From Bolinopsis microptera (Eukaryota > Ctenophora > Tentaculata > Lobata > Bolinopsidae), in the NCBI RefSeq assembly GCF_026151205.1, contig NC_087079.1, positions 248,001-312,000 on the forward strand: a stretch of DNA of 64,000 nt. The letters run 5' to 3'. Shown one piece after another: positions 1 through 42,502 of this stretch. Under the pieces are notes generated by a model, which was not told the DNA's origin, did no database searches, and saw only the letters and a list, made by a program, of their open reading frames with translations. A program made the position numbers and the translations under genes. Positions within the stretch are counted from its first letter, which is position 1, and each line of letters starts with the position of its first letter.

Positions 1-946
1 ATGTATTACTGTCTCTTTTAGAAATACAAATATATCTATTACGGTCTGAAAATATTAAATCAACAACTTCATTAATCATATTCTCTACTTCAATCAAGTC
101 TAATCTGGTATAAAGAGTAGTAAAATCATATACTTGTATATTATAAACATCGCTATTTTTGATAGCTTCAAGGAATTCACTTGAGGAATCTATGCTCCAA
201 AACATGTTTATACCGCTGTTGTTGTAGATTGCCTCGCAGTATTTCTTGAAGTATTTCCTCAAAAGTTTCAGACAACAGTTAACTTGGACGTTAAGTTGTT
301 TCGTAACGCAAAAACGGGCACCTGCAATGAACCTCGCCTTGTAAGGGTTCTTATGAAGCTTAGGGTTCCAGAAGATGCGTGCTAGTCGCAAGTTTTTATC
401 TTCAACTTGTACATTAAATCTCTCCTTTAGACTCTCAGATATTTTATTGACATAATGAGTCTCGTCTTCGCTACAGGGTTTATATGTATCATTACCTATA
501 CATTCTAGAGTATTAGGATCAAAACCCATTTCATTGACAAGAGTTTTTACATAAAACTTTTTACAAATAAATGAAAAATTACCAGAAGCTTTGTCGATAC
601 TACAAATAATGTATTTACTTTTCAGCAATTTAAGACTTCTTTTAACATCATCTTTTTCCAGTGTGTTTTCTTTTATTTCAAATGTTTCAGGAAAGTTTTT
701 CTTGTAATATTCAATACGATTGGAAACTATTGATAACACTTTTTCCTTCCAATCGCTGAACTTTACTTCTTTTTGACAGTACTTTCTACTTTTTGATTTT
801 ATAAATTTATCGACAGCTTCGGTAACTGACATATATATCTCATCTGGAGATTTAAATGTGGGAATTCTGTATTTACAACCGTAGGAAAGTACTTCCCTAA
901 GTTCAACATTATCAACAATATCTAAATTACCAGTAACTACATGTCC
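1..946 (-). pseudogene. Penelope-like element RT region (distal part of the split N-GIY-YIG PLE, runs off the window)
   Basis: Read on the minus strand this stretch is open throughout and has no start of its own, because it is the continuation of the ORF at 3101-4223. It holds the PLE signature 'NPKLHKNPYKARFIAGAR' near positions 400-300, a 'DKASGNFSF' segment upstream of it, and a 'YDFTTLYTRL' palm-like segment near the window edge. This is reverse transcriptase of the Penelope superfamily. Joining its first codon (position 946) to position 3104 restores one frame, since GTCC is duplicated on both sides of the 947-3100 insertion. The catalytic end of RT lies outside the window. Confidence 0.8.
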
Positions 947-1559
947 ATTAGCCCGGTTCATAAAACAAAAATATTATCCAATAATTACGGCGATAGGCTT
1001 ATCTGTTGTTCCTTAGGCCAAATAACTACCAAAAAAATTTTGAAGCTTCAACTCCAACCGGAAACACCCCCACATGCCACGCCCATTTTTTTCATCAATT
1101 TTTAACAGGTAAAAATCTTCATATCATCAATTTAGGCATGAAGGAGTGCTTTTAGTGCTCCAACAGTTTGGGGTCTAATAGTAATGGTAGAAAAAGGTTA
1201 ACTTTAGTCAAAGTCTCAAGTCTCCACGGCGCTTGGTTTAGGCGCACCGGATCTCGCGTCTCCGCCTCCGCTGCGTGATTGGTGGCGCCAGAACTAAAGG
1301 TCGTAGAGACATGAGACTTCAACTAAAGTTAACCTTTTCCTACCATTTATATTAGAGTAGCACAGATTCAGAGCTCTAAACACATTCCTTCATCCTTAAA
1401 ACGATAATCATATGAATTTTGCCTGTAAAAGTTGATATCTTGATGTCAATTAACATCGTAAGCTTTTAAAACTAAAATTAATTAAATGAGTCATAATACT
1501 TCACACAATATTTACACACAATATGAAAATATAAATACAGGAAGTCTTTTGGATTCCAC
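947..1559 (+). repeat. Left terminal inverted repeat of the 2.15-kb element
   Basis: Matches the reverse complement of 2490-3100 with scattered differences. It contains the subterminal module with CCACGCCCATTTTTTT (about 1075-1095) that is also found, diverged, in the hAT-like MITE at 61643-62481. Confidence 0.85.
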
Positions 1560-2489
1560 GTCTCCACACCCTGGAACTGTCAGAGGTAAGAACAATAGAA
1601 CAGTCTTTTATTAATAATCCAACAATCATATTATATGAACCTTTTCAGTTGAAACTTCGTTGGTTGCATTGTGTTGCAAAATTTCTTGCATTACAATACT
1701 AGTGAAAATAAACATTACTGGGGGAATTTGCCCTCTTCCAAGCTCTCTTACAATGAAGTCGCATTCCGGAGACTAATGTTTATGAATGAGCAGTCACTGT
1801 CGAGAACGAGCTGGTCGAGTATTGGGAATATGCCATCTATGGCGTGGAGAATTTCCCCTCTATACCGTGGAGAATTTCCCCTCTTCATGAATCCTACAAG
1901 AATTTAACAAGTATTCCCCCATCTTGGAGAGGGAATCAGTCCTTCAGCTTCAAGAAATTCAGTTTACAGAAGAGATTCATTTAGATGTTAGATCCATTAC
2001 TGATAACTTGGTAAAGGAATTAGAACCAGATGCTACTTTGTTAGCTAATGCTTGGATATTTATAGTTATTTACTTAACTTTGTCTTGACGTATCAGTAAG
2101 AGATTACTGTACCTCGTTATTTACGAAGAAATCATCAGACCTTATTAATAGTGATCGGTGACCCTGTCAGTGACGACTGACGAGCTATGAAGGAATCATT
2201 GGATCTCATTGATAATGATCCTGTCAGTGACGAGCTATGAAGGAATTATTGGACCTCATCAATGCTGATCCTATCGGTGACGAGTTATAAAGAAATAAAG
2301 ACCTCATTTAAATCCTAGTTTGACGAAAATATTCCTCTGGCAACAAAATTCCTTTTGGCAACGAAGATTAGACAGCTTGCTGGTGAAGACTTGGCGATCC
2401 GAAAACCAGGGTACCTAAATCAGAACCTGCTGACTTCTTTAAAGGATCAGTTCCACTTTCCAGTGCAGGGACCGAGAAAAGTTCAATGT

Positions 2490-3100
2490 CGAATCCAAGA
2501 GACTTCCTGTATTTATATTTTCATATTGTGTGTAAATATTGTGTGAAGTATTATGACTCATTTAATTAATTTTAGTTTTAAAAGCTTACGATGTTAATTG
2601 ACATCAAGATATCAACTTTTAAAGGCAAAATTCATATGATTGTCGTTTTAAGGATGAAGGAATGTGTTTAGAGCTCTGAATCTGTGCTACTCTAATATAA
2701 ATGGTAGGAAAAGGTTAACTTTAGTTGAAGTCTCATGTCTCTACGACCTTTAGTTCTGGCGCCACCAATCACGCAGCGGAGGCGGAGACGCGAGATCCGG
2801 TGCGCCTAAACCAAGCGCTGTGGAGACTTGAGACTTTGACTAAAGTTAACCTTTTTCTACCATTACTATTAGACCCCAATCTGTTGGAGCACTAAAAGCA
2901 CTCCTTCATGCCTAAATTGATGATATGAAGATTTTTACCTGTTAAAAATTGATGAAAAAAATGGGCGTGGCATGTGGGGGTGTTTCCGGTTGGAGTTGAA
3001 GCTTCAAAATTTTTTTGGTAGTTATTTGGCCTAAGGAACAACAGATAAGCCTATCGCCGTAATTATTGGATAATATTTTTGTTTTATGAACCGGGCTAAT
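2490..3100 (-). repeat. Right terminal inverted repeat of the 2.15-kb element
   Basis: Reverse-complement partner of 947-1559. The two arms differ by a few substitutions, so the insertion is not brand new. Confidence 0.85.
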
Positions 3101-4223
3101 GTCCATGAGGAGGATAATTGAAAGGGGAGGAGTGACAATCGCATGGACTACCTAAAATAGATTTAATATCAGAAATAGAAAGTTTCTTTAAGAATGAAGC
3201 ATAGTTACAAATAGAAAGACTTATAGGATCATTATACTCATAATAAATCTGTAATGGTGTAAAAGACTGAATCAAAATGGGAAGCAAATCAATGACTGAA
3301 GTGTCAGAGAAAATAGATTTTAGGTTAAGATTATCAATGAATTTGCAATTAAATGGAACAATTATAAATTCTCTATTACTGGATTCAGATTTGTTCTGAT
3401 GGTATTTGGGGGAAAATGTTGAACAGAAAGAGGAACATACGTTGTAAATCAATCCTGAATTATTTTGACTCAAAGAGTAGAGAGTGTCTAAATCTGATAA
3501 GCTATAACATTTTAATGTTTTGTATATGGAATGTTCTGAAGAGATGTTATCTTTCAGCCTGTTAATATCAGACTCTATGGTATCCAGAGACTTCTTAGGC
3601 TGAACTTTCTTCTTTCCATTCCCTCTGCCACGTTTGTATCGAGCAATCTGTCCACTAAAATAATTCATAACCCGATCTTGGGAGATGTTGCCCGTTCCTT
3701 TCTTCTTGTCATTAAGACCAAGAGGGAATGCTGTCCCAAGCTTCTCTATCCAGTAATCCTCCAGGAGAAGTAAATCATTTTTGACATCAGTGGACATGTC
3801 AGAATCAACATAATCTACAATCTGTATGGAAGCATCTGAGAAGACGTGACCAGGAATATTAAGATGTTCATATAAAAATGTGGATGATTTGGCTTTGACA
3901 CAATTTCTGTGGCCATTGACTCTTTTATGAAGTGGTTGAGTTGTTTCTCCAACATATTGTTTTTTACAGGTAGAACAGGTAATAACATAAATAACATTAT
4001 TAGTTTTACAATTAAATATAAAATTTGTATGTCCAAAGATAAAATCATTATTAAAAGTACTGCTCCTAAATGTATTAACAGGATTAAAACTGTTGCAAGT
4101 GAGACAGCCTCTACCATTGCAACATCTAAAAGTGCTAGAAAAGACATTACTAGGGGTTACCCATTTATTCAAGGATTTTGAGAAAAATTTACCATTACGT
4201 TTAAGTCGAGAAGGTAACATCAT
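3101..4223 (-). CDS. PLE with N-terminal GIY-YIG endonuclease (5' part, interrupted)
   Basis: Begins at ATG 4223; an in-frame stop lies just upstream. Residues about 33-45 form a Cys cluster (CCNGRGCLTC). A GIY-YIG nuclease follows directly (NVIYVITCSTCKKQYVGETT, about 78-97, then HKRVNGHR with the conserved Arg, and LLEDYWIEKL). A basic linker (RYKRGRGNGKKK) follows, and the frame then runs into the inverted-repeat element at 3100 and continues as RT at 946-1. Penelope elements proper carry GIY-YIG at the C-terminus. The order here, nuclease before RT with a preceding Cys motif, is that of the Chlamys/Naiad-type PLEs. The assignment rests on domain order and motifs, not on a tree. The ORF cannot be expressed whole in its present state. 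Confidence 0.8.
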
Positions 4224-4692
4224 CCCTTTCGGCGTTTCCGCCTAGACCCAACGACTCGAGATAGGCCAAGGACAACGGGTCGGACATCAACCTATTGTCA
4301 TGGGGCTGCCATGATTGGGCGGGCGTTAGATGTCATGAACCTAAATAGTTCTCCCACCGACGCAGTGTAGCCTGGCGAGATTCTTCGCGACCATAAAAAT
4401 CTCTTAGAACCGGATCTTGCACTGCCGCTGTTTCTCGTACCGTAGCATGGCGGACAGCTCACGCCAGAAAATGAAATAAACAGGTAAATACAGGATAAAA
4501 CAGGAGATGTATGTACAACAACAAGACTTCAAGGAGGGCGCCCAAGAAAACAAAGATCAACCAAATCTCGGAACCAATGGCCGGGAGAGATATAAATGTA
4601 ATTATAGAGCAATATCAAGAAAAGCTATCAATTATGTATCCAACGGGGCGGAAGAACCGACCACCAGTACTTGATACCATGATACGGACGTA
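4224..4692. other. 5' region of the minus-strand PLE and flank, no gene
   Basis: Relatively GC-rich (GGGCGGGCGTTAG, GTACCGTAGCATGGCGG) compared with its surroundings. It probably holds the PLE 5' UTR. No ORF with recognisable content is present. A short open frame at 4511-4693 has no recognisable motif. Confidence 0.4.
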
Positions 4693-4694
4693 AT

Positions 4695-5985
4695 CTAACT
4701 TGAAGAGTACTGCAAGGTATCCTGGAGTTACCTTGAAGAGTACTACAAGATATTCTGAAGTTAACTTGAAGAGTACCACAAGGTATCCTGAAATTAACTT
4801 GAAGAGTTCTACAAGGTATCCTGAAGTTAACTTGAATAGTACTACAAAGTATCCTGAAGTTAACTTGAAGAGTAATACAAGGTATCCTGAAATTAACTTG
4901 AAGAGTTCTACAAGGTATCCTGAAGTTAACTTGAAGAGTAATACAAGATATTCTGAAGTTAACTTGAAGAGTACCACAAGGTATCCTGAAATTAACTTGA
5001 AGAGTTCTACAAGGTATCCTGAAGTTAACTTGAATAGTACTACAAAGTATCCTGAAGTTAACTTGAAGAGTAATACAAGATATTCTGAAGTTAACTTGAA
5101 GAGTACCACAAGGTATCCTGAAATTAACTTGAAGAGTTCTACAAGGTATCCTGAAGTTAACTTGAATAGTACTACAAAGTATCCTGAAGTTAACTTGAAG
5201 AGTACTACAAGGTATCCTGAAGTTAACTTGAATAGTACTGCAAGGTATCCTGGAGTTAACTTTAAGAGTACTGCAAGGTATTCTGAAGTTAACTTGAAGT
5301 GTACTACAAGATATCGTGAAGTTAACTTAAAAAGTACTACAAGGTATCCTGAAGTTAACTTGAAGAGTACTACAAGGTATCTTGAAATTAACTTGAAGAG
5401 TACTACAAGGTATCCTGAAGTTAACTTGAAGAGTACTGCAAGATATCCTGAAGTTAACTTGAAGAGTACTACAAGATATCCTGGAGTTACCTTGAAGAGT
5501 ACTACAAGATATTCTGAAGTTAACTTGAAGAGTTCTACAAGGTATCCTGAAGTTAATTTGAAGAGTACTACAAGATATTCTGAAGTTAACTTGAAGAGTA
5601 CCGCAAGGTATCCTGAAATTAACTTGAAGAGTTCTACAATGTATCCTGAAGTTAACTTGAATAGCACTACAAAGTATCCTGAAGTTAACTTAAAAAGTGA
5701 TGCAAGGTATCCTAAAGTTAAATTAAAAAGTACTACAATTTATCCTGAAGTTAATTTGAAGAGTACTGCAAGGTATCCTGAAGTTAACTTGAAGAGTACT
5801 ACAAGATACCCTGGAGTTAACTTAAAAAGTGATACAAGGTATCCTGGAGTTAACTTAAAAAGTGATACAAGGTATCCTGAAGTTAACTTTAAAAGTATTA
5901 CAATGTATCCTGAAGTTAACTTGAAGAGTACTACAAGGTATCCTGGAATTATCTTGAAGAGTTCTACAAAGTACAAGGTATCCTA
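4695..5985 (+). repeat. 33-bp minisatellite, ~39 units
   Basis: Unit of 33 bp built around GTTAACTTGAAGAGTACTAC plus AAGGTATCCTGAA. Because 33 is a multiple of 3 and no frame-specific stop occurs, one forward frame reads as 11-residue repeats (KSTTRYPEVNL) for 428 codons and one reverse frame stays open as well (LFKLTSGYLVV). Openness on both strands shows these are not protein genes. Units differ at a few fixed positions. Confidence 0.95.
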
Positions 5986-6257
5986 AAATTAACTAAAATG
6001 TATTCTTAAGTTAACTTGCAAGTACTGCAAATCCGAGAGGCGATAAAATATCAAATATATCGGGACCGATATAATTGGAAGACGACAAATATCTAACTTT
6101 AGGTCAACTTCATGCTTTCTGTCAGTTAACTTTAGGACCAGATCAGCTTTATCTTAATTTGATTCAAGTTTGCCTGCAGGCTACCACAACAACAACAACA
6201 TAGAGGTTGTTATAGGTTTAATTAAGTATATAAAGGATAATTTGAAGCTAACTTGTA

Positions 6258-6650
6258 GTTCTCTTTAAAGTTAACTTCAGGATACCTTGTAGTACTCTTC
6301 AAGTTAACTTCAGGATACCTTGTAGAACTCTTCAAGTTAACTTCAGAATATCTTGTAGTACTCTTCAAGGTAACTCCAGGATACCTTGTAGTACTCTTCA
6401 AGTTAACTTCAGGATATCTTGCAGTAATCTTCAAGTTAACTTCAGGATACCTTGTAGTACTCTTCAAATTAATTTCAAGATACCTTGCAGTACTCTTAAA
6501 GTTAACTCCAGGATACCTTGCAGTACTATTCAAGTTAACTTCAGGATACCTAATTGTGGTACCTACTCTTCAAGTTAACTTCAGGATATCTTGTAGTACT
6601 CTTCAAGGTAACTCCAGGATACCTTGCAGTACTCTTCAAGTTAACTTAAG
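6258..6650 (-). repeat. 33-bp minisatellite, inverted array, ~12 units
   Basis: The same unit as 4695-5985 in reverse orientation, so the two arrays and the spacer (5986-6257) form a giant palindrome. One unit (about 6555) carries an insertion that breaks the period. Confidence 0.93.
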
Positions 6651-6907
6651 AATACATTCTAGTTAATTTTAAGCAGAATGTTTAAGATAGATCTTAGAAT
6701 GAAACAAAAAAGCCCTTTTCAGACAAAACTTAGTAGCTGTACTATTCTAAGCAATGTTATTCTGACATTTGGAAATATTTCCTTCCGTTTGAACATAGAC
6801 TATATTGCTTAGGATACAATGACATTCTTAATAATCACTGCAATTCTGTAAAAGCCATACAACAATTCTTCTGTTCAGTAAAGCAATTCTTCAAAAATAT
6901 AACAAAA

Positions 6908-7026
6908 GGATACGGCACCCCGGAATTTCCAGGCGGTCACCCATCCAAGTACTAACCCGGCCTGCAGTTGCTTACCTTCCCAGATCGAACGAGATGGGGT
7001 GTATTCAGCCGAGTATGGCCGTGTAC
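6908..7026 (-). rRNA. 5S rRNA gene copy (in foldback arm A)
   Basis: The minus strand reads as a 5S rRNA of about 119 nt. Recognisable are a CATCTCGTTCGATCTGGGAAG-like A-box/intermediate region, GGTTAGTACTTGGATGGGTGA (C-box region) and CCGCCTGG, closed by complementary ends (GTACACGGCC near 7026 and GCCGTATCC near 6908). Relative to the copy at 38871 it has changes such as CCTGGAAATTCCGGGGTGCC near the 3' end, so it may be a pseudogene. It sits in a transposon arm, not in an rDNA cluster. Confidence 0.87.
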
Positions 7027-7917
7027 AGTGATGTTGAATTTTGCTTCTCTATATCTTCTCACACAAATTCTTACACTCACACCAACCCTGTATGTGGTTC
7101 ATTGATTAGTTATTATAAGAACAAGTTGTTAGAATACATTAAATTCCTTTGACAGATAACAATACAATATTTTCCTTATCTTCTAATTAAACTTCGTGAT
7201 AAGTAAACTGTTAACTTCATGCCAACTCTATATTATACTTCACACTGCACACGGTACACACTACATAGTTAATGGTTGCCTTGTTGTGGAATGTTATTAA
7301 AGTATTAATCACCATCAAAAATGTGACTGATATTGTTGTGTGTCTGTTCATAGTAGCTAGATCAGCTGGGTGCGCTGATCTGTGATCTCGGCGCGCTCAA
7401 AAAAGCAAATTGGGGACACGTTTTTGTTGTTTTTTTATAGTCGCGAGTTAATTTTACTTTTGAAAACTTTTTACGAGGTGTTAGAAGCCACCTTAAGGTC
7501 TAAAGAGATGAAATCTTGACTAGCACCTACCTGAAAGGCTTTTATCCAACGGGTTTTTCTCAGATTTTTGATATCTCACTTCCTTTTTCCACAGGTGACC
7601 GAAACGTACACGTCATTCTGGACTGCATGCGACTACTCTCGTTACTGAAAGAGATGCTGTGCGACACACGATTATCCTAGGATGATGAGAGTTAGTTTCT
7701 GGGAAAGCCCTAACGATGCTTAAAACGATAGGGGCTGAAAATATTATCAACTATTGAAAACGTGTCCCCAGGACTTCGTTGAAGTCGCGAGATTCGATAC
7801 CCGTAAAATAATGTAGCCAACTACTAGCAAAAACGTGTCCCCACGCGCCAGGGTTGTTATATACGTAGGCTAAATACTAATAGAAGCTAAGTAAAACGAA
7901 CACAAACTGCAAACAAA

Positions 7918-8937: not shown

Positions 8938-9105
8938 GTCTATGCAACGTCTATGCAACGTCCGTGCAACAACAAAAGAACCGTCTATGCAACGTCTATG
9001 CAACGTCCCTGCACAATGAACACTCTATGCACACTCCCTGCACGGTCAGTCTATGCAACGTCTATGCAACGTCTATGCAACGTCTATGCAACGTCCCTGC
9101 ACAGT
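8938..9105 (+). repeat. 11-bp tandem repeat (CGTCTATGCAA)
   Basis: About a dozen imperfect copies of an 11-bp unit CGTCTATGCAA/CGTCCCTGCAC in blocks. An apparent 73-residue ORF here is a by-product of the repeat. Confidence 0.85.
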
Positions 9106-9116
9106 ACCATATGAAC

Positions 9117-9955
9117 ACCGGCTACTAGCCGGCTACTAGCCGGCTAGTAGCCACTTTTGTAATAACAGCTCCTCAACTTCACATTAACAACCGGCTACTA
9201 ACCGGCACTTGAAAAGTGGTCACTAGCCGGCTACTAACCGGCTACTAGCCGGCTAGTGACCACAAAGTGGCTACTAACCGGCTACTAAGCGGTCACTAGC
9301 CGGCTATTAGCCGAGCTCTAAAGCAGACCTACTAGTAGCCGGTTCCAAACCGGCTACTAGCCGGCACTTAGAAAGCGGTCACTAGCCGGCTACTAACCGG
9401 CTACTAACCGGCTAGTAACCACCAAGTGGCTACTAACCGGCTACTAACCGGTCACTAGCCGGCTCTAAAGCAGACCTATTAGTAGCCGGTTCTAAACCGG
9501 CTACTAGCCGGCACTTGAAAAGCGGTCACTCGCCGGCTACTAACCGGCTACTAACCGGCTAGTAACCACCAAGTGGCTACTAACCGGCTACTAACCGGTC
9601 ACTAGCCGGCTATTAGCCGAGCTCTAAAGCAGACCTACTAGTAGCCGGTTCCAAACCGGCTACTAGCCGGCACTTAGAAAGCGGTCACTAGCCGGCTACT
9701 AACCGGCTACTAACCGGCTAGTAACCACCAAGTGGCTACTAACCGGTCACTAGCCGGCTCTTAAGCGGACCTACTAGCCGGCACTCGAAAAGCGGTCGCT
9801 AGCCGGCTACTAACCGGCTACTAACCGGCTAGTAACCACCAAGTGGCTACTAACCGGTCACTAGCCGGCTCTAAAGCGGACCTTCTAGTTCCAAACCGGC
9901 TACTAGCCGACACTTGAAAAGCGGTCACTAGCCGGCTACTAACCGGCTACTATTT
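9117..9955 (+). repeat. Higher-order satellite of CCGGCTACTAGCCGG words
   Basis: The short word CCGGCTA(C/G)TA(G/A) recurs dozens of times. The words are organised into larger units of roughly 110-155 bp, each with a marker such as CCACCAAGTGGCTACTAACC (near 9420, 9565, 9720 and 9835) and CTAAAGCAGACCTACTAG. The words are partly self-complementary, so the block can fold extensively. Confidence 0.92.
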
Positions 9956-10031
9956 GAAACTTGTTATTTGAAACAAATTGTAAATGTAAAGCACAACGTA
10001 AATGTAAATACCACATAATCAATCAAAATGA

Positions 10032-10140
10032 TGCCGGTTAGTAGCCGGCTAGTGACCGCTTTCTAAGTAGCCGGCTAGTGACCGCTTTCTAAGTGCCGGC
10101 TAGTAGCCGGTTTGGAACCGGCTACTAGTAGGTCCGCTTA
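10032..10140 (-). repeat. Inverted block of the CCGGCTA satellite
   Basis: Reverse complement of the marker segment found at 9326-9430 (for example GACCGCTTTCTAAGTGCCGG and GGTTTGGAACCGG). It is separated from the main array by about 75 bp of AT-rich sequence. Confidence 0.85.
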
Positions 10141-29436: not shown

Positions 29437-29643
29437 GGATGATAATTAATCACTCTACACTCGGCTGTCACGTGACTTTTTAAACACGTCCTATAGGTGG
29501 TTCTGGATGACTATTCGAAACCCTAAACCTCTAATCTGATCTCAACCCGGCCCTAACCCTAACCCAATCCTAACTGAATCATATGCTGAAACCCTAACCC
29601 AAACGATAAATTAGACCAATTACTTCCTTGTATATAATATATA
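29437..29643 (+). repeat. Repeat S, left half (split by PLE2)
   Basis: Matches 8398-8590, including the CCCTAACCCTAACCC run, and stops at the TATATAATATATAT junction with PLE2. Confidence 0.8.
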
Positions 29644-31626
29644 TTCGATAAAGGAGTAGGATTCTTCCTTCTTAGCGAAGAAGATTATATTCAACGAATA
29701 GGTGTACATTTAAATGATAGATCTGTATATAGTATTGTAAATAATGTAGATGATTTAGTTGTAGAATTGATTGATAAAATTTCGAATTGGACAATTGAGT
29801 TTAAAGATGAATTAGGTATGTCCAAGAAGGTCAAGGAGTGGGTTATTCCATGTACTGAGCTTAACCAGCCTGGAAACATGTACCTGAATCCCAAGGCACA
29901 CAAACCACCTTTGTATCCTGGGAGGATGATTACCACCGGCTGTGGTTCATACATTGAAAACCTTTCTGCCTTGACTGCGTATGAATTGAAGAAGGCTACT
30001 TTGAATTATAGAATTATTGATACCCCTCACTTTCTGAGGAAGATTGATAGCCTGAACGAGTCTAGCATATTGTTGGGAAAGGAGGTTATACATGTTGCCA
30101 TCGATATATCTAACATGTTTACCAACATTCCTAGGGATATGGGGATCCAACAATGCACTAAGCACCTGAATAAAAGGAGTAGTGGTGATCAATTGTTTAG
30201 TACAGAATGCATTATTAGTGCACTAGAAATTACTCTTGATTACAACATTGCTTCATTTAACGGTATAACATACCGCCAGGAGCGTGGAGCAGCGATGGGT
30301 CCTAAGAACTCATGTGAGTATGCTGATTGTGCTATGGATAAGATTGATATTTTAGTTAACGAAGGAGATCTAGAATATGGCCCGCCTCATAGACCTGCAT
30401 TCTGGGGTAGATTACGTGATGACATTTATATGGCTTGGCCCGGTACTGTTGAGGAATTATTACAATTCATGGAATGGCTCAATAGTATCCACCCAAACCT
30501 TTTGTTTACTTACGACTACTCTAGGGACGGCGTTGAGTTTCTAGACACCTATGTCTATGCTGTTGGTGATGTTGTCCACACCAAACTCTACTCTAAACCT
30601 AGTGACACCCACTGCTACCTTATCCCCACGTCATGCCATAGGAACCATGTTGTAAAAAACATACCTTTTGGAGTGGCGAGGCGGGTGAGACAGAACAACA
30701 GTGAAGACACTAACTTCTTGGAGCAGAGAGAGGTCTATACACGTTACCTTCTAGCCCGAGGTTATCATTCCAGTATTATAGAAGATGCCTTTAACAAATT
30801 TAGTGATATAGCTAATAGGAAAAACTTGTATACCCTTAAAGACAAGGATGAGTCGACTGCCTGTTTAATACCCATGGTGATGGATCAAAACCCAGCACTT
30901 CCCAACATGGGGGGCATTATCCATAAGTATAAGCACCTTCTCAACCTTGATCCGGCCCTGAAGAAGCTGGTACGTGCGGACAGTGTATTCGTGAGTCATC
31001 GAAAGAATCAAACTATCGGTGGCATGCTTGTACACAATAAGTACCGTGCCAGTGGAACTTTAAACTGTGATAATGAGAGAGAAACAACTGCAAGCCAGAT
31101 CCAGGAACCAGACTCCGAAAGTCTAAGGGCGGTTCCCGGGGCTGTCGACCCAGGGTGCCATGCTTGTGGTAAATGTTATGTTTGTAAGCAAAATTTCCTG
31201 TCCCCCTGTTCCAATTTTAGTAGTCACCATTCTAAACAAGTTTTCCCTATAACTAAGTATATATCTTGTCAGAGTTATAACCTCATTTATTTAATGGAGT
31301 GTAAGACTTGTAAACAGTCGTATGTCGGTTATACTACCTCAAATCTCCCTAAGAGATTCTCTAACCATAAGAGTCACATAAAGAAAGGTATAAGAAGTTG
31401 TAAATTAGTTAACCATTTTTTAGATATTGATCATGATTTAGATTTTAGTACCATAGCCTCCTATAATTCCTCACTCAGTAAGCACCTTTCTGTCATTATA
31501 GTAGACGCTTTAGTATTTGAGCCTAATATTAGTAAAGCAGACAAAGAAAAGGCTATGGAAGCTAGAGAGGGGTTCTACCAGACCCAATTGAAAACCCTTG
31601 AACGGTTTGGGGGTATAAATAAATAA
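29644..31626 (+). CDS. PLE2: Penelope RT plus C-terminal GIY-YIG (5'-truncated)
   Basis: Open from 29644, although the first ATG is 29767. Opens at FDKGVGFFLL, a conserved PLE N-terminal motif, then NPKAHKPPLYPGRMITTGCG, VAIDISNMFTNIP (palm Asp), GAAMGPKNSCEYAD, and LRDDIYMAW (catalytic RDD). The linker has CHACGKCYVCK. The GIY-YIG nuclease is NLIYLMECKTCKQSYVGYTT followed by RFSNHKSHIKKG and EAREGFYQTQLKTLERFGG. Target-primed transposition with a GIY-YIG nuclease is known for Penelope elements. The element lacks its 5' part, and its 3' end is split by an L2-like element, so it is probably inactive although the frame is undamaged. Confidence 0.9.
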   Translation, partial: FDKGVGFFLLSEEDYIQRIGVHLNDRSVYSIVNNVDDLVVELIDKISNWTIEFKDELGMSKKVKEWVIPCTELNQPGNMYLNPKAHKPPLYPGRMITTGCGSYIENLSALTAYELKKATLNYRIIDTPHFLRKIDSLNESSILLGKEVIHVAIDISNMFTNIPRDMGIQQCTKHLNKRSSGDQLFSTECIISALEITLDYNIASFNGITYRQERGAAMGPKNSCEYADCAMDKIDILVNEGDLEYGPPHRPAFWGRLRDDIYMAWPGTVEELLQFMEWLNSIHPNLLFTYDYSRDGVEFLDTYVYAVGDVVHTKLYSKPSDTHCYLIPTSCHRNHVVKNIPFGVARRVRQNNSEDTNFLEQREVYTRYLLARGYHSSIIEDAFNKFSDIANRKNLYTLKDKDESTACLIPMVMDQNPALPNMGGIIHKYKHLLNLDPALKKLVRADSVFVSHRKNQTIGGMLVHNKYRASGTLNCDNERETTASQIQEPDSESLRAVPGAVDPGCHACGKCYVCKQNFLSPCSNFSSHHSKQVFPITKYISCQSYNLIYLMECKTCKQSYVGYTTSNLPKRFSNHKSHIKKGIRSCKLVNHFLDIDHDLDFSTIASYNSSLSKHLSVIIVDALVFEPNISKADKEKAMEAREGFYQTQLKTLERFGGINK

Positions 31627-35307: not shown

Positions 35308-35541
35308 CATCAGTGAATACAGTTACCTGGACTTCCGTGCTGTGAATCTACAATCAGAAAGCAACAGTCAAATCACACTGACTTCTTTAGATTCCGCCAG
35401 ATCTTCTACCAGTAGAGTGATCCAGAAGTTCATCCTGTCCTTGTCATATCAGTGTTTTGTCTACGTTCATGTTTGTGCACCAGTCTGTAAACTTTGTTAA
35501 TACACTCTCCACACTCATCGCAACAAAGTCTCCGCCAAAAT

Positions 35542-38036
35542 ATGTACCACAGACCTACTAACACTTCCGATAGGTTTATTGCTGCTTTGTCTAATGCTGG
35601 AAGGAAAAACATCCGTATACAACAGCAGTACTTCTACCTTATGAAAAGCAAGCAACAATCAACAATACCAAAAGGTATCTTTGAACAGTGTCAATTTCAG
35701 TGTAGTGTCAGAGACCCTGTTTTAGAGAAGTTGACCGCCAGTATGATGATATTCACAGCTAGCAGAATCTTGGATATCTTAATCCTCTACTACCACAACT
35801 GGTCAAACAGACTAAGAGAGAACTACTACAAACTGGAAAATGAGTTTAAAACTGCTGTGCCAACAAACCATTTTGAGAGAGGTATGGCTACTGTCCAACA
35901 CAAGATCCGCCAACAGAAACTGGAATGTGAGAAAACACACGATTCTAAGTTAAATAGAGACAAGGTGAATGGAACAGAGGTATACATCAAAAACAGCTAT
36001 ACTTCATTACCAGAACAACCAGAAGTACCCAGGATATCTCTAACCAAAACGAGAACTCGTAGGCGCAAGGAGAAAAAATCAAAAGTCACTAAACCTAGAA
36101 AAAGGAAATCTGTCCATAAACACAGGAGGGATGGGATAAAATCAAGACCACTTAACAGAAACAATGTCAGCCAAGCTGCATTAGACAAAACTGTCATTAA
36201 TCTCTCGTCCAAAACAGTTACAAATGCTCATAAGTTTGTCTTCCACCTTGGAGAATCATTTGCAGTTACTCCTTCTAAAACGAACAGAGATAAACTAGTA
36301 GAAGATGTAAACTCCTGGGCAAACTCACTTAGAATGAGTTTCGTCCTCAGTAGAGTTGTAATCCCCACCCAAAATGTAGAAGAGAAAACCCTTGACCAGA
36401 AGGTAAAGCAAATGGAGAAAGTTCTAGGAATAAAAACCTCAAAGAAGAAGAATTTCTCTAACAGTGGTAATCATGCATTAGAACTGTTCATCAGCAATGT
36501 CAAGAAACAGATATCTAATCACCCTAGAAAACCAAAGCCAGCTCCTAGGAATGTAGACAAGGAGACTACAAAAGCAATCCAAGAGCTCAAAAGCTGGGAT
36601 GATGCTGTAATTCGATTATTTGATAAAGGGACTGGGTTCTTTGTGTTAGACAAATCAGACTACATCAATAGAGTAGAAGCTGCTCTAAAAGATCAGAGCA
36701 CTTTCAAACAAGTATCGGATCAACAACAACAGATCCACACAACCATCATCACCATTAAAGAGTGGGTTCTGAAATACTCAGCAGATGCTGACTGCCCTGG
36801 CATGACCCCAAACTTTATGGAATGGGTAACACCTAGTGAAGAGGAAAATGAACCTGGAGTAAACTACATGAACCTGAAAGCTCACAAACCGGAGAAAAAC
36901 TACCCTGGGAGACTTATCAGCACTGGATGTAACTCTTACATCAAGAACCTCTCAATATTCACAGCAGAAGAACTAAAGAAGGTAACCCTGCCCCACTGCC
37001 TCATGGATTCTAATGATCTACTTATAAAGATGAAAGAACTCAATGAGTCAGGAAGATTGACTGGGAAGACCATCTACCACGTTACATTTGATATTGTAAA
37101 CATGTTCCCCAGCATTTCAAAGGAGATTGGACTACCAGCCTGTAGAACCTTACTAGACCAAAGAAGTACTAAACTTTTCTCCACAGACTGCGTTATGGAA
37201 GCTTTGGAGATAACTCTGGATAACAACATCACTGTTTTCAATGGCAACATGTATGTACAGACAAGTGGAACTGCGATGGGTCCAAATAATGCTTGCCAGT
37301 ATGCAGACTCAGCTCTCAGCCCCTTGGACAGTAAGATCGTGGAGAGCCAAGAAATCACAACCCCTCAGTTCTATGGCAGATACCGTGACGACATATACAT
37401 CACCTGGACTGAGTCACTGGAGAAGCTAGACCAGTTCCTACTTTGGCTCAATCAATACCATCCAAACCTCAAGTTTACAATGTCGACACCTTCTACAGAG
37501 GGGACTGAATTTCTAGACCTGTTTATTTACTCGAAAAATTGCAAGCTAGAAACTAGGACGTACTGCAAACCTAGTGATGCCCATAGCTATTTACTCCCAC
37601 AATCCTGCCACCCTACACACATAGCAGAGAATATTCCATATGGAGTAGCACATCGAGTGTTCAAAAACTGTTCAGAGGAAGAAGAGTATTTGAAATGTAA
37701 AATTGAATTTAGTGAATATCTAGAAGATAGGAATTACAATAAAGATCTTATCCATAAATCCTTTGAGAAAGTTGAGTTACTTAAACGGGATGATCTGATT
37801 TCAAAAAACCTTACAAGCTCTAATAGTAAGAAGAGTGAAAGATGTTTTCCTTTAGTTTGTGATTTTGACCCTAACTTACCTCCAATTGGTAAAATAGTTA
37901 ACAAGAATAAATTTATCCTTGGCCTAGACCCCCTTTTAAAGTCTTTGATCCAGCCTAGTAAAGTATTTGTTTCATATCGTGGTAATAAAACTATCAAAGA
38001 AACTTTAGTTCCGAGTAAACTTTCAGAAGATCGTAA
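35542..38036 (+). CDS. PLE3 RT ORF (interrupted by foldback element B)
   Basis: First ATG 35542; the frame is open further upstream. A long basic N-terminal region (TRTRRRKEKKSKVTKPRKRK, about residues 168-187) is followed by LFDKGTGFFVLDKSDY, MNLKAHKPEKNYPGRLISTG, HVTFDIVNMFPSI, SGTAMGPNNACQYAD, and YRDDIYITW (catalytic). Then come TYCKPSDAHSYLLPQSCHPT and VFVSYRGNKTIKETL. At 38036 the frame runs into element B, which supplies an artificial tail ending at 38142. Skipping 38037-42200 plus one GTAA continues the same frame at 42205. It is a different family from PLE1/PLE2, and the only one here with its N-terminal region. Confidence 0.9.
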
Positions 38037-39249
38037 CAACCCCAGCGCGTGGGGACACGTTTTTGCTAGTAGTTGGCGACGATATTTTATGGGTATCGAA
38101 TCTCGCGACTTCAACGAAGTCCTGGGGACACGTTTTCAATAGTTGATAATATTTCAGCCCCTATCGTTTTTAGCATCGTTAGGGCTTTCCCAGATACTAA
38201 CTCTCATCATCCTAGGATAATCGTGTGTCGCACAGCATCTCTTTCAGTAACGAGAGTAGTCGCATGCAGTCCAGAATGACGTGTACGTTTTGGTCACCTG
38301 TGGAAAAAGGAAGTGAGATATCAAAAATCTGAGAAAAACCCGTTGGATAAAAGCCTTTCAGGTAAGTGCTAGTCAAGATTTCATCTCTTTAGACCTTAAG
38401 ATGGCTTCTAACACCTCGTAAAAAGTTTTCAAAAGTAAAATTAACTCGCGACTATCAAAAAACAACAAAAACGTGTCCCCAATTTGCTTTTTTGAGCGCG
38501 CCGAGATCACAGATCAGCGCACCCAGCTGATCTAGCTACTATGAACAGACACACAACAATATCAGAGCAGTCACATTTTTGATGGTGATTAATACTTTAA
38601 TAACATTCCACAACAAGGCAACCATTAACTATGTAGTGTGTACCGTGTGCAGTGTGAAGTATAATATAGAGTTGGCATGAAGTTAACAGTTTACTTATCA
38701 CGAAGTTTAATTAGAAGATAAGGAAAATATTGTATTGTTATCTGTCAAAGGAATTTAATGTATTCTAACAACTTGTTCTTATAATAACTAATCAATGAAC
38801 CACATACAGGGTTGGTGTGAGTGTAAGGATTTGTGTGAGAAGATATAGAGAAGCAAAATTCAACATCACTGTATACGGCTATACTCGGCTGAATACACCC
38901 CATCTCGTTCGATCTGGGAAGTTAAGCAACTGCAGGCCGGGTTAGTACTTAGATGGGTGACCGCCTGGGAATTCCCGGTGCCGTATCCTTATGTTATATT
39001 TTTGAAGAATTGCTTTACTGAACAGAAGAATTGTTGTATGGCTTTTACAGAATTGCAGTGATTATTAAGAATATCATTGTATCCTAAGCAATATAGTCTA
39101 TGTTCAAACGGAAGGAAATATTTCCAAATGTCAGAATAACATTGCTTAGAATAGTACAGCTACTAAGTTTTGTCTGAAAAGGGCTTTTTTGTTTCATTCT
39201 AAGATCTATCTTGAACATTCTGCTTAAAATTAACTAGAATGTATTCTTA
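38037..39249 (+). repeat. Left inverted arm of element B
   Basis: Pairs with 41229-42200 over its whole length except for the 242-bp gap, and with 6651-7856 in copy A. It contains an internal hairpin AGATCAGC/GCTGATCT near 38509-38533 and the complete 5S rRNA copy. Confidence 0.92.
38871..38989 (+). rRNA. 5S rRNA gene copy (left arm of element B)
   Basis: About 119 nt and the best preserved of three. Landmarks are CATCTCGTTCGATCTGGGAA, GTTAAGCAACTGCAGGCCGG, GTTAGTACTTAGATGGGTGA and CCGCCTGGGAATTCCCGG. The ends GTATACGGC and GCCGTATCC pair as helix I. The internal Pol III promoter elements are recognisable, so it could be transcribed. A T-run terminator is not immediate (ATGTTATATTTTT follows). 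Confidence 0.9.
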
Positions 39250-39319
39250 ATCTAGGTAAACTATAGGTAAAAATATAATATTAATCATAAGCTAAAATGT
39301 ACTAATCTTTGTATTCTAA

Positions 39320-39586
39320 ATGGGGAAAAAGAAGAAACATTGTCAGTCAGTCGAGAAAATTGTCAGTCAGGCTATATGGCAGCTTTGTAGATGTTGTGAC
39401 TATGCTAGTAGTGGTCCCAGGCTTGCGACTGGAATTGCGGTGTTAAATCGATTTAATGGTATACCAACGATCCACCTCCCACTTGTTGTTTGGTACTTAG
39501 CATTAATAGTGTTAGCTGTAGCCATTTATAGCAAGAATCTTAAAAATAAAGGGGATGACAAGGAAAAGAGGAAGGAAAAAGAATAA
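39320..39586 (+). CDS. Hypothetical 88-aa basic protein with one membrane segment
   Basis: Starts MGKKKKHCQS and has a CRCC pair, one hydrophobic stretch (about residues 51-70, LPLVVWYLALIVLAVAIYSK) and a highly charged tail (DDKEKRKEKE). It lies in a segment (about 39250-39645) present in element B but absent at the equivalent place in copy A (near 6651). I do not recognise the family. It could be a captured host exon or a small element-encoded protein; the frame may also be fortuitous. Confidence 0.4.
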   Translation: MGKKKKHCQSVEKIVSQAIWQLCRCCDYASSGPRLATGIAVLNRFNGIPTIHLPLVVWYLALIVLAVAIYSKNLKNKGDDKEKRKEKE

Positions 39587-39646
39587 CGGAACAAACAATT
39601 AATTAAAGTATTTATAGGAGCATTAGATATTGTTAATGCTCAAGTT

Positions 39647-39835
39647 AAGTTAACTTGAAGAGTACTGCAAGGTATCCTGGAGTTACCTTGAAGAGTACTA
39701 CAAGATATTCTGAAGTTAACTTGAAGAGTACCACAAGGTATCCTGAAATTAACTTGAAGAGTTCTTCAAGGTATCCTGAAGTTAACTTGAAGAGTACTAC
39801 AAGGTATCCTGAAGTTAACTTTAAAAAGAACTACA
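39647..39835 (+). repeat. 33-bp minisatellite in element B, short + array
   Basis: Five to six units of the same repeat as 4695-5985; its first units are the same variants in the same order as 4704 onward. Confidence 0.9.
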
Positions 39836-40075
39836 AGTTAGCTTCAAATTATCCTTTATATACTTAATTAAACCTATAACAACCTCTATGTTGTTGTTGT
39901 TGTGGTAGCCTGCAGGCAAACTTGGATCAAATTAAGATAAAGCTGATCTGATCCTAAAGTTAACTGACAGAAAGCATGAAGTTGACCTAAAGTTAGATAT
40001 GTGTCGTCTTCCAATTATATCGGTCCCGATATATTTGATATTTTATCGCCTCTCGGATTTGCAGTACTTGCAAGT

Positions 40076-41230
40076 TAACTTAAGAATACATTTTAGTTAA
40101 TTTTAGGATACCTTGTACTTTGTAGAACTCTTCAAGTTATCTCCAGGATACTTTTCAGTACTCTTCAAGGTAACTCTAGGATACCTTGCAGTACTCTCCA
40201 AGGTAACTTCAGGATACATTGTAGTACTTTTTAAGTTAACTTCAGGATACCTTGTATCACTTTTTAAGTTAACTCCAGGATACCTTGTATTACTTTTTAA
40301 GTTAACTCCAGGGTATCTTGTAGTACTCTTCAAGTTAACTTCAGGATACCTTGCAGTACTAATCAAATTAACTTCAGAATAAATTGTAGTACTTTTTAAG
40401 TTAACTTTAGGATACCTTGCATCACTTTTTAAGTTAACTTCAGGATACTTTGTAGTGCTATTCAAGTTAACTTCAGGATACCTTGTAGAACTCTTCAAGT
40501 TAATTTCAGGATACCTTGCGGTACTCTTCAAGTTAACTTCAGAATATCTTGTAGTACTCTTCAAATTAAATTCAGGATACCTTGTAGAACTCTTCAAGTT
40601 AACTTCAGAATATCTTGTAGTACTCTTCAAGGTAACTCCAGGATACCTTGTAGTACTCTTCAAGTTAACTTCAGGATACCTTGCAGTACTATTCAAGTTA
40701 ACTTCAGGATACCTTGTATCACTTTTTAACTTAACTCCAGGATACCTTGTAGTACTCTTCAAGTTAACTTCAGGATATCTTGCAGTACTCTTCAGTCTTC
40801 AAGTTAACTTCAGGATACCTTGTAGTACTCTTCAAGTTAATTTCAAGATACCTTGCAGTACTCTTAAAGTTAACTCCAGGATACCTTGCAGTACTATTCA
40901 AGTTAACTTCAGGATACCTAATTGTGGTACTCTTCAAGTTAACTTCAGGATACCTTGTAGTACTCTTCAAGTTAACTTCAGGATACTTTGTAGTACTATT
41001 CAAGTTAACTTCAGGATACCTTGTAGAACTCTTCAAGTTAATTTCAGGATCTTCAAGTTAACTTCAGAATATCTTGTATTACTCTTCAAGTTAACTTCAG
41101 GATACCTTGAAGAACTCTTCAAGTTAATTTCAGGATACCTTGTGGTACTCTTCAAGTTAACTTCAGAATATCTTGTAGTACTCTTCAAGGTAACTCCAGG
41201 ATACCTTGCAGTACTCTTCAAGTTAACTTA
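40076..41230 (-). repeat. 33-bp minisatellite in element B, long inverted array
   Basis: About 35 units in reverse orientation. Small deletions (about 40795 and 41050) break the period. Frames are open on both strands over long stretches, which is a repeat artefact. Confidence 0.93.
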
Positions 41231-42200
41231 AGAAAATATTCTAGTTAATTTTAAGCAGAATGTTTAAGATAGATCTTAGAATGAAACAAAAAAGCCCTTT
41301 TCAGACAAAACTTAGTAGCTGTACTATTCTAAGCAATGTTATTCTGACATTTGGAAATATTTCCTTCCGTTTGAACATAGACTATATTGCTTAGGATACA
41401 ATGATATTCTTAATAATCACTGCAATTCTGTAAAAGCCATACAACAATTCTTCTGTTCAGTAAAGCAATTCTTCAAAAATATAACATAAGGATACGGCAC
41501 CGGGAATTCCCAGGCGGTCACCCATCCAAGTACTAACCCGGCCTGCAGTTGCTGAACTTCCCAACTCTATATTATACTTCACACTGCACACGGTACACAC
41601 TACATAGTTAATGGTTGCCTTGTTGTGGAATGTTATTAAAGTATTAATCACCATCAAAAATGTGACTGCTCTGATATTGTTGTGTGTCTGTTCATAGTAG
41701 CTAGATCAGCTGGGTGCGCTGATCTGTGATCTCGGCGCGCTCAAAAAAGCAAATTGGGGACACGTTTTTGTTGTTTTTTGATAGTCGCGAGTTAATTTTA
41801 CTTTTGAAAACTTTTTACGAGGTGTTAGAAGCCATCTTAAGGTCTAAAGAGATGAAATCTTGACTAGCACCTACCTGAAAGGCTTTTATCCAACGGGTTT
41901 TTCTCAGATTTTTGATATCTCACTTCCTCTTTCCACAGGTGACCGAAACGTACACGTCATTCTGGACTGCATGCGACTACTCTCGTTACTGAAAGAGATT
42001 CTGTGCGACACACGATTATCCTAGGATGATGAGAGTTAGTTTCTGGGAAAGCCCTAACGATGCTTAAAACGATAGGGGCTGAAAATATTATCAACTATTG
42101 AAAACGTGTCCCCAGGACTTCGTTGAAGTCGCGAGATTCGATACCCATAAAATATCGTCGCCAACTACTAGCAAAAACGTGTCCCCACGCGCTGGGGTTG
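41229..42200 (-). repeat. Right inverted arm of element B
   Basis: Reverse complement of 38037-39249 minus the 242 bp equivalent to 38676-38917. Ends CCCCACGCGCTGGGGTTG. Confidence 0.92.
41490..41563 (-). pseudogene. Truncated 5S rRNA (right arm of element B)
   Basis: Retains the 3' two-thirds (GGATACGGCACCGGGAATTC through GCAGTTGC); the 5' part was removed by the 242-bp deletion, whose edges share TGG. Confidence 0.88.
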
Positions 42201-42204
42201 GTAA

Positions 42205-42502
42205 GTATCATGAAGATAGTAATGTTATAGCTTTAAACTCTAACACTGAAAATGTGGCTCTGCCTACTAGTATAGAAGAGGGGGGATGTTATCATTGTAA
42301 CTCCAGATGTAAAGCCTGTAGAATGTATATTTGTGAATCAAAAACAGCTCAGAGCTACCACTCGGGGTACACTGTTAACATCATTGGACAACTAGACTGC
42401 AACACAGTAGGGGTGTGCTATCTAGTAAGGGATAAAGTCTGCAGACGTGCTTCAGTAGGAAGCACAGTTGACAATTTTAAGACCAGTGGCAGAACCACAA
42501 AT
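42205..42502 (+). pseudogene. PLE3 continuation: Cys linker and start of GIY-YIG
   Basis: In frame with the RT ORF after removal of element B. Contains GGCYHCNSRCKACRMYICES (zinc-like cysteines) and VGVCYLVRDKVCRRASVGST (GIY-YIG core). A one-base shift near 42484 puts WQNHKSH into another frame, and repeat R then interrupts the domain. Confidence 0.8.

What the first reader, a model, noticed from the sequence alone, without database searches (positions are those of the whole stretch)
38037..42200. Foldback DNA element that carries 5S rRNA genes inside kilobase-long terminal inverted repeats
Element B has matching ends (CAACCCCAGCGCGTGGGG), a GTAA duplication and 1-1.2 kb arms. Each arm contains a 5S rRNA sequence, and the middle is a giant palindrome of 33-bp minisatellites. 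Copy A (4693-7856) confirms the family. 5S-derived SINEs are known, but 5S genes as part of a DNA transposon's inverted arms are not something I recognise. It could spread 5S genes or supply Pol III transcription across its own ends.
Basis: partly seen in the sequence, partly recalled or inferred. Interest (0 to 1): 0.87.

Follow-up and report, generated by a model that had tools for sequence, protein, structure and literature searches.

The report
Transposon carrying 5S genes in arms
A mobile DNA element in an unnamed eukaryote genome carries a copy of the cell's own 5S ribosomal RNA gene in each of its two mirror-image arms, so its copies have scattered extra 5S genes around the chromosomes.

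Summary
Element B (38037-42200) is a 4,164-bp insertion with CAACCC...GGGTTG ends and a GTAA duplication. Removing it restores the Penelope-like ORF it interrupts. Genome-wide it belongs to a family of long-inverted-repeat DNA elements: 63 exact termini, 25 facing pairs, control 0. Target duplications of at least 4 bp flank 18 of 18 elements with intact ends; a 19th with a degraded end shows none. Eight members carry 5S rRNA in both arms. In 6 of 16 arms the gene is 119/119 identical to the genome's 5S arrays, whose spacers are unrelated. A 35-bp upstream promoter-like block is kept; 14 of 16 arms keep TTTT after the gene, B does not. B's right 5S is a truncated remnant. "Copy A" is really 10,364 bp and starts outside the window. 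A second, asymmetric repeat family (F2) has the same 5S-minisatellite core, so the 5S members look like chimeras. No transposase and no RNA evidence were found. The 5S genes face inward, so they would not transcribe across the ends. Literature searches all failed, so novelty is unchecked against print.

The parts
38037..42200 (.). Element B, complete family F1 insertion (4,164 bp)
   Evidence: ends, target duplication and restored frame on removal
38033..38036 (.). target-site duplication GTAA, left copy
42201..42204 (.). target-site duplication GTAA, right copy
38037..39250 (+). left arm (about 1.2 kb)
   Evidence: self-comparison; BLAST against other copies
41228..42200 (-). right arm, same as left but with a deletion that removes the 5S upstream region and the first third of the 5S
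38037..38482 (+). outer module of the inverted repeat (element positions 1-446), shared by the F1 subfamilies
38051..38061 (+). GGGGACACGTT motif 1 (candidate transposase site; inferred)
   Evidence: same position in 11 of 12 elements scanned (allowing the subfamily variants), missing in L022
38124..38134 (+). GGGGACACGTT motif 2
38470..38480 (-). GGGGACACGTT motif 3, inverted
41756..41766 (+). mirror of motif 3 in right arm
42103..42113 (-). mirror of motif 2
42176..42186 (-). mirror of motif 1
38836..38870 (+). 35-bp upstream promoter-like block of 5S (TATA-like at about -30, AAATTCA at about -15); promoter role inferred
   Evidence: conserved only within -35..-1 among seven 5S contexts
38871..38989 (+). 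5S rRNA gene in left arm (4 differences from genomic 5S; TTTT after the gene mutated)
41489..41577 (-). 5S rRNA remnant in right arm
39249..39633 (.). abundant separate 385-bp repeat inserted in the left arm (also in copy A's left arm, same place); twister-P5-like sequence at 39417-39476 minus
39647..39837 (+). 33-bp minisatellite, left
39838..40115 (.). centre; first 225 bp shared with F2 elements
40116..41229 (-). 33-bp minisatellite, right, inverted
35491..38036 (+). Penelope-like (GIY-YIG lineage) ORF interrupted by B; resumes at 42205
   Evidence: joined frame open for 975 aa; the two pieces themselves had no Pfam hit; the ORF at 29638-31626, which I read as a homologue by eye, has GIY-YIG
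1..7856 (.). copy A, part inside the window (whole copy C8:245493-255856)
6646..7856 (-). right arm of copy A
6907..7026 (-). 5S rRNA of copy A's right arm (degenerate, 88.8 bits)

Best explanation
B belongs to a non-autonomous class II (cut-and-paste type) transposon family with long inverted repeats. Shown: shared termini (CAMCCC...GGGKTG), GGGGACACGTT-type sites at fixed places in the arms of the 12 elements scanned (one site missing in L022, one in L033), 4-5-bp AT-rich target duplications, insertion into an ORF, and different interior sequence in different subfamilies (no recognised gene, zinc-finger-like pieces, or a 5S gene). Inferred: it is moved in trans by a transposase not found here. 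The 5S subfamily is a chimera: the inverted repeat is fused, about 30 bp upstream of the 5S, to a 5S-33-bp-minisatellite core that also occurs in a second, asymmetric repeat family (F2). Inverted duplication put the 5S in both arms (inferred), so each insertion deposits two inward-facing 5S genes with a short upstream promoter-like block and, in 14 of 16 arms, TTTT after the gene. The 5S is a true copy of the genome's 5S gene. It is most likely passenger cargo kept intact by recent spread and perhaps by gene conversion with the arrays. Transcription is plausible but untested.
For: 63 exact termini, 31 plus and 32 minus, control 0; 25 facing pairs by my count. Target duplications 18 of 18 among elements with both ends intact against 30 of 306 mismatched pairs. 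Removing B leaves a 975-aa open frame. A and B share a left-arm-only insertion at the same place although they sit 30 kb apart with different target duplications, as expected if one element was copied. Eight elements carry the 5S downstream flank in both arms (29 of 29 candidates scored); 5S confirmed by Rfam in the 20 loci scanned (13 hits) and in the window. 5S 119/119 identical to arrays on C5 and C13 in 6 of 16 arms, with the spacers of the array loci compared unrelated. Upstream block conserved at -35..-1 (mean pairwise identity 0.61; 0.27-0.32 further out), also for elements against non-element 5S alone (1 and 0 of 10,000 shuffles reach it). F2 shares the core. Motif layout.
Against: No transposase or autonomous copy was recognised in what I read (ORFs of 5 loci listed; Pfam on 5 ORFs of L028/L029); the superfamily is unassigned. 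L027 has a degraded end and no duplication. In copies A and B the 5S has diverged as fast as or faster than its flanks (A left 7/119 against 6/447, p 0.009; A right p 0.036; B left p 0.49), which speaks against constraint on the element's 5S in that lineage. B has one truncated 5S and has lost the TTTT. 13 of 63 termini are unpaired at exact match. No expression data.
Confidence: 0.77

Rival explanations
1. The 5S is a working part of the element: a Pol III unit selected in the arms (for an RNA, for open chromatin or factor binding), a DNA-transposon counterpart of 5S-bearing retroelements.
For: Present in both arms of the 8 members; within one base or a short indel of the array gene in 12 of 16 arms; upstream block kept; same 5S cassette in two families with 0/119 changes in 5S against 21/244 and 19/244 in the flank between one F1 arm and two F2 copies (p 2e-4 and 6e-4).
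Against: Other F1 members with the same ends have no 5S at Rfam's cut-off (L028-L040; L033 also at E 1), so it is not needed to move; A and B 5S decay; identity could come from gene conversion with the arrays.
Confidence: 0.15
2. Ordinary dispersed or linked 5S genes with inverted duplications, not a mobile element.
For: The genome has other dispersed 5S genes: 8 of 47 scored hits are in neither arrays nor the two families.
Against: Shared termini, target duplications, ORF interruption and 5S-free relatives with the same ends.
Confidence: 0.03
3. The inverted arms are an assembly or read-foldback artefact.
For: Long palindromes are a known long-read artefact (recalled).
Against: Arms differ by about 1.5% plus a deletion, the arrays are unequal, the target duplication is outside and the interrupted ORF resumes beyond the far arm; many independent sites.
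Confidence: 0.02
4. F2 is the primary mobile 5S element and F1 only picked up an F2 insertion; the 5S of F1 is of no special interest. (A special case of the best explanation, so the odds overlap.)
For: F1 contains an F2-like core from 5S -28 to F2 centre position 225; the F2 start recurs at 16 of the 17 pattern places on heads found independently.
Against: The far end of F2 and its mode of movement were not found; direction of transfer not shown.
Confidence: 0.4

Closest known systems
Cassandra TRIM retrotransposons of plants (recalled; no paper could be read)
   Same: Both terminal repeats carry a 5S gene with Pol III promoter; non-autonomous
   Different: Cassandra has direct LTRs and moves through RNA; here the repeats are inverted, ends are CA...TG, DNA-type with 4-5-bp target duplications
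Foldback elements such as Drosophila FB and Galileo (recalled)
   Same: Very long inverted repeats with internal tandem repeats and a variable middle
   Different: FB 9-bp and Galileo 7-bp duplications (recalled) against 4-5 bp here; no 5S known to me there
Gene-capturing inverted-repeat elements such as Pack-MULEs (recalled)
   Same: Non-autonomous, different members carry different host sequence pieces
   Different: Pack-MULE duplications are 8-11 bp (recalled); here cargo includes a complete RNA gene in both arms
5S-derived SINEs (SINE3 and others; recalled)
   Same: 5S-derived sequence in a mobile element
   Different: SINEs begin at the 5S and end in a tail; here the 5S lies about 835-870 bp inside each end of a DNA element

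Membership tests
Class II inverted-repeat transposon | terminal inverted repeats at exact ends | tested here: met
Class II inverted-repeat transposon | target-site duplications of near-constant length | tested here: met
   12 of 5 bp, 5 of 4 bp, 1 of 7 bp in an AT run, 18 of 18 elements with intact ends; L027 with a degraded end shows none
Class II inverted-repeat transposon | many copies in unrelated flanks, one with restored empty site | tested here: met
Class II inverted-repeat transposon | DDE transposase in an autonomous copy | tested here: inconclusive
   ORFs listed in L027, L028, L029, L030, L034; Pfam on five ORFs of L028 and L029 gave weak zinc-finger matches and single weak MIOS_WD40 and PROCN matches, all under cut-off; the longest unread pair, C1:14974528-14982568, was not read
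Drosophila FB / Galileo | 9-bp / 7-bp target duplication (recalled) | tested here: not met
   4-5 bp in 17 of 18
Pack-MULE / Mutator | 8-11-bp target duplication (recalled) | tested here: not met
   4-5 bp in 17 of 18
Cassandra TRIM | direct terminal repeats (LTRs) with 5S | tested here: not met
   repeats are inverted
5S-derived SINE | 5S at the 5' end of the element | tested here: not met
   5S starts 834 bp inside the left end of B
5S rRNA gene | full Rfam 5S structure and identity to the genome's arrays | tested here: met
   up to 110.4 bits, 119/119 in 6 of 16 arms
5S rRNA gene | transcription by Pol III | not testable with these tools
   no RNA data

The most novel reading that the evidence does not exclude
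Two different mobile element families of this genome share a complete Pol III-competent 5S cassette, and the 5S is held intact in the arms because the element benefits from it: a DNA-transposon counterpart of Cassandra that keeps exchanging sequence with the host 5S arrays and continually seeds new 5S loci.
Probability: 0.2. Interest if true: 0.82.

Novelty: new variant of a known kind. Interest (0 to 1): 0.62.

Why it matters
How 5S genes come to be scattered and homogenised across chromosomes is an old question, and mobile carriers are one proposed answer (recalled). Here 5S genes with a short upstream block sit inside a mobile DNA element in 8 insertions, in several copies identical to the arrays while the surrounding sequence differs. 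That makes dispersal by transposition and gene conversion directly testable with reads from this species and its relatives.

Tried and rejected
Rejected: chance, ordinary dispersed 5S units, assembly artefact (see rivals). Considered and not kept: seeding of the 5S arrays by the element; the array loci compared match the arm only over the gene itself (L049, L052, L064, L065, L067, L070; the third array, C13:15241635-15247125, was not read). A tRNA-like stretch I thought I saw by eye in the centre of the 2.7-kb subfamily (L033) was not found by ARAGORN or Rfam at E 1. F2 as an inverted-repeat element: its 16-bp start (CACGGCTGTTCTAGCG, up to 1 mismatch) has no inverted partner near the far end, so its class stays open. 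My first terminal pattern lacked one base and found only 4 places; the corrected one is. My first script for the empty site used a right junction some bases off and was redone. A scan for relatives of the 87-aa ORF in the inserted repeat found none in viral contigs. A plasmid search with the arm found nothing. The superfamily of F1 was not settled.

Full report
WHAT IS THERE. Element B occupies 38037-42200 (4,164 bp). It begins CAACCCCAGCGCGTGGGGAC, ends GTCCCCACGCGCTGGGGTTG, and is flanked by GTAA on both sides. It interrupts a Penelope-like ORF: with B and one GTAA removed the frame runs open for 975 aa, against 883 aa when read straight into the element. The two pieces had no Pfam hit; the ORF at 29638-31626, which I read as a homologue by eye, carries a GIY-YIG domain. 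The arms match at 98.5% over 648 bp and again over 336 bp. The left arm has a full 5S gene (100.8 bits); the right arm keeps only about nt 45-119 of it (34.3 bits, below cut-off). The middle is 33-bp minisatellite in opposite orientations, about 6 copies left and 33 right, round a 278-bp centre.

Its coordinate 4693 is the inner edge of an insertion nested in A. A and B share a 385-bp insertion at the same place in the left arm only but have different target duplications, TTATA and GTAA: they are copies of one element, not independent events.

THE FAMILY (F1). The window lies in a 264.65-Mb unnamed eukaryote assembly of 232 contigs. An arm query gave 41 matches, 40 of 87 candidates scored. An exact 25-base terminal pattern gave 63 places, 31 plus and 32 minus, with none for the reversed pattern; I count 25 facing pairs 2.5-10.3 kb apart and 13 unpaired ends. 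Of 19 elements read with both ends, 18 have intact ends and all 18 show direct duplications of at least 4 bp (12 of 5 bp, 5 of 4 bp, 1 of 7 bp in an AT run; 82 of 87 bases A or T), against 30 of 306 for mismatched left-right pairs. The 19th, L027, has a degraded left end and no duplication. In the members without 5S the inverted repeat is 823-840 bp (L034: 433 in one piece); in L022-L026 the inverted match runs on into the minisatellite, 1.85-2.3 kb at 91-98%. Between subfamilies about the outer 446 bp and a block of about 110 bp are similar. A GGGGACACGTT-type motif sits at element positions 15, 88 and 435 (inverted), mirrored on the right, in the 12 elements scanned except position 15 of L022 and one mirrored site of L033; in three 2.7-kb members the motif changes to GAGGGCACGTT at several of these sites together. 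I take these as transposase sites; that is inference.

CARGO. Eight F1 elements (A, B, L022-L027) carry the 5S downstream flank in both arms; that search scored all of its 29 candidates. Rfam at its cut-off finds 13 5S genes in the 20 fetched loci, all in L021-L027, none in L028-L040. L029 instead carries pieces with weak C2H2 zinc-finger matches (E 4e-4 to 0.1, below Pfam cut-offs); its interior matches L028 and, in 8 shorter pieces of 78-95% identity, other places of the genome. So different members carry different sequence between the same ends.

THE 5S. Rfam search of the genome scored 47 of 7176 candidates: by position, 12 lie in F1 arms, 4 in F2, 23 in tandem or locally repeated units (C5, mostly about 855-bp spacing; C13, mostly about 877 or 854, including one unit at C13:12783783 with array-type flanks), and 8 elsewhere, of which I read 3. 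The 5S genes of A and B were not among the 47. The 5S of 6 of the 16 F1 arms is 119/119 identical to the arrays; six more differ by one base or a short indel; A left differs at 7, A right at 6 plus a gap, B left at 4; B right is truncated. The spacers of the array loci compared do not match the arm: similarity stops at the gene. Among seven 5S contexts (two arrays, three dispersed genes, F1, F2) the 35 bp just upstream are conserved (mean identity 0.61, the F1-F2 pair included) and nothing further out is (0.27-0.32); F1 and F2 resemble the five non-element contexts (means 0.52 and 0.57) more than 9,999 and 10,000 of 10,000 shuffles. Fourteen of 16 arms have TTTT after the gene; both arms of B have TTAT. 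So the elements hold a complete gene with a short upstream block that looks like a promoter (function inferred).

FAMILY F2 AND ORIGIN. The same 5S, 250-bp downstream stretch, 33-bp array and centre occur in a second family with a different start, CACGGCTGTTCTAGCG. That pattern has 14 exact and 3 one-mismatch places; the reversed control had 53 at this stringency, so the count alone says little, but 16 of the 17 sit on heads found independently. In the 13 places where I can match a head with a centre, both lie on the same strand, so F2 is asymmetric. F1 and F2 are similar from 28 bp upstream of the 5S to position 225 of the centre. Between one F1 arm and two F2 copies the 5S has 0 of 119 changes and the downstream flank 21 and 19 of 244 (p 2e-4 and 6e-4). 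I conclude that the F1 5S subfamily is a fusion of the F1 inverted repeat with an F2-like core; direction is not proven.

HOW IT WORKS. Most likely a non-autonomous DNA transposon moved by an enzyme not found here; each insertion deposits two inward-facing 5S genes. Identity with the arrays fits recent spread plus gene conversion or constraint. Against constraint: in A and B the 5S has changed as fast as or faster than its flanks (p 0.009, 0.036, 0.49). The idea that the 5S drives transcription across the ends is not supported: the genes point inward.

LIMITS. 

Noticed in passing
39249-39633 (and C8:246696-247087): A 385-bp repeat with 463 first-look candidates in the genome (40 scored; 45 of 46 matches 98-100% identical), some in head-to-tail partial tandems about 350 bp apart, with a twister-P5-like sequence on the minus strand (28.7 bits here, 26.3 in copy A, below the 37.6 cut-off; E 0.0005-0.006 depending on the stretch searched) and an 87-aa ORF without Pfam match on the plus strand. 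It could be a ribozyme-bearing retro-repeat.
   Followed up: partly
L048, L046 and the places: Family F2: asymmetric repeat with the same 5S gene and 33-bp array; 3' region rich in CTCTCGGA / CCTATCGG repeats; far end not found.
   Followed up: partly
C6:3964826-3965622 and 3980835-3981631: Two F2 copies in outward inverted orientation about 16 kb apart, perhaps an inverted duplication.
   Followed up: no
940-1559 and 2488-3107: Another long inverted repeat (620 bp, 99%) inside the insertion nested in copy A, next to a GIY-YIG ORF at 3096-4241.
   Followed up: no
L055: A C5 5S array unit carries a non-5S insertion bounded by long G and C runs with inverted ends (seen in the output).
   Followed up: no
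8938-10104: Complex 11-bp-based tandem repeats with GCCGGCTA units.
   Followed up: no
L028, L029: F1 members carrying zinc-finger-like pieces and an ORF that looks like an RTE-type reverse transcriptase tail (the RTE label is from recall).
   Followed up: partly
C1:14974528-14982568: Longest unread F1 pair (8.04 kb); best candidate for an autonomous copy.
   Followed up: no
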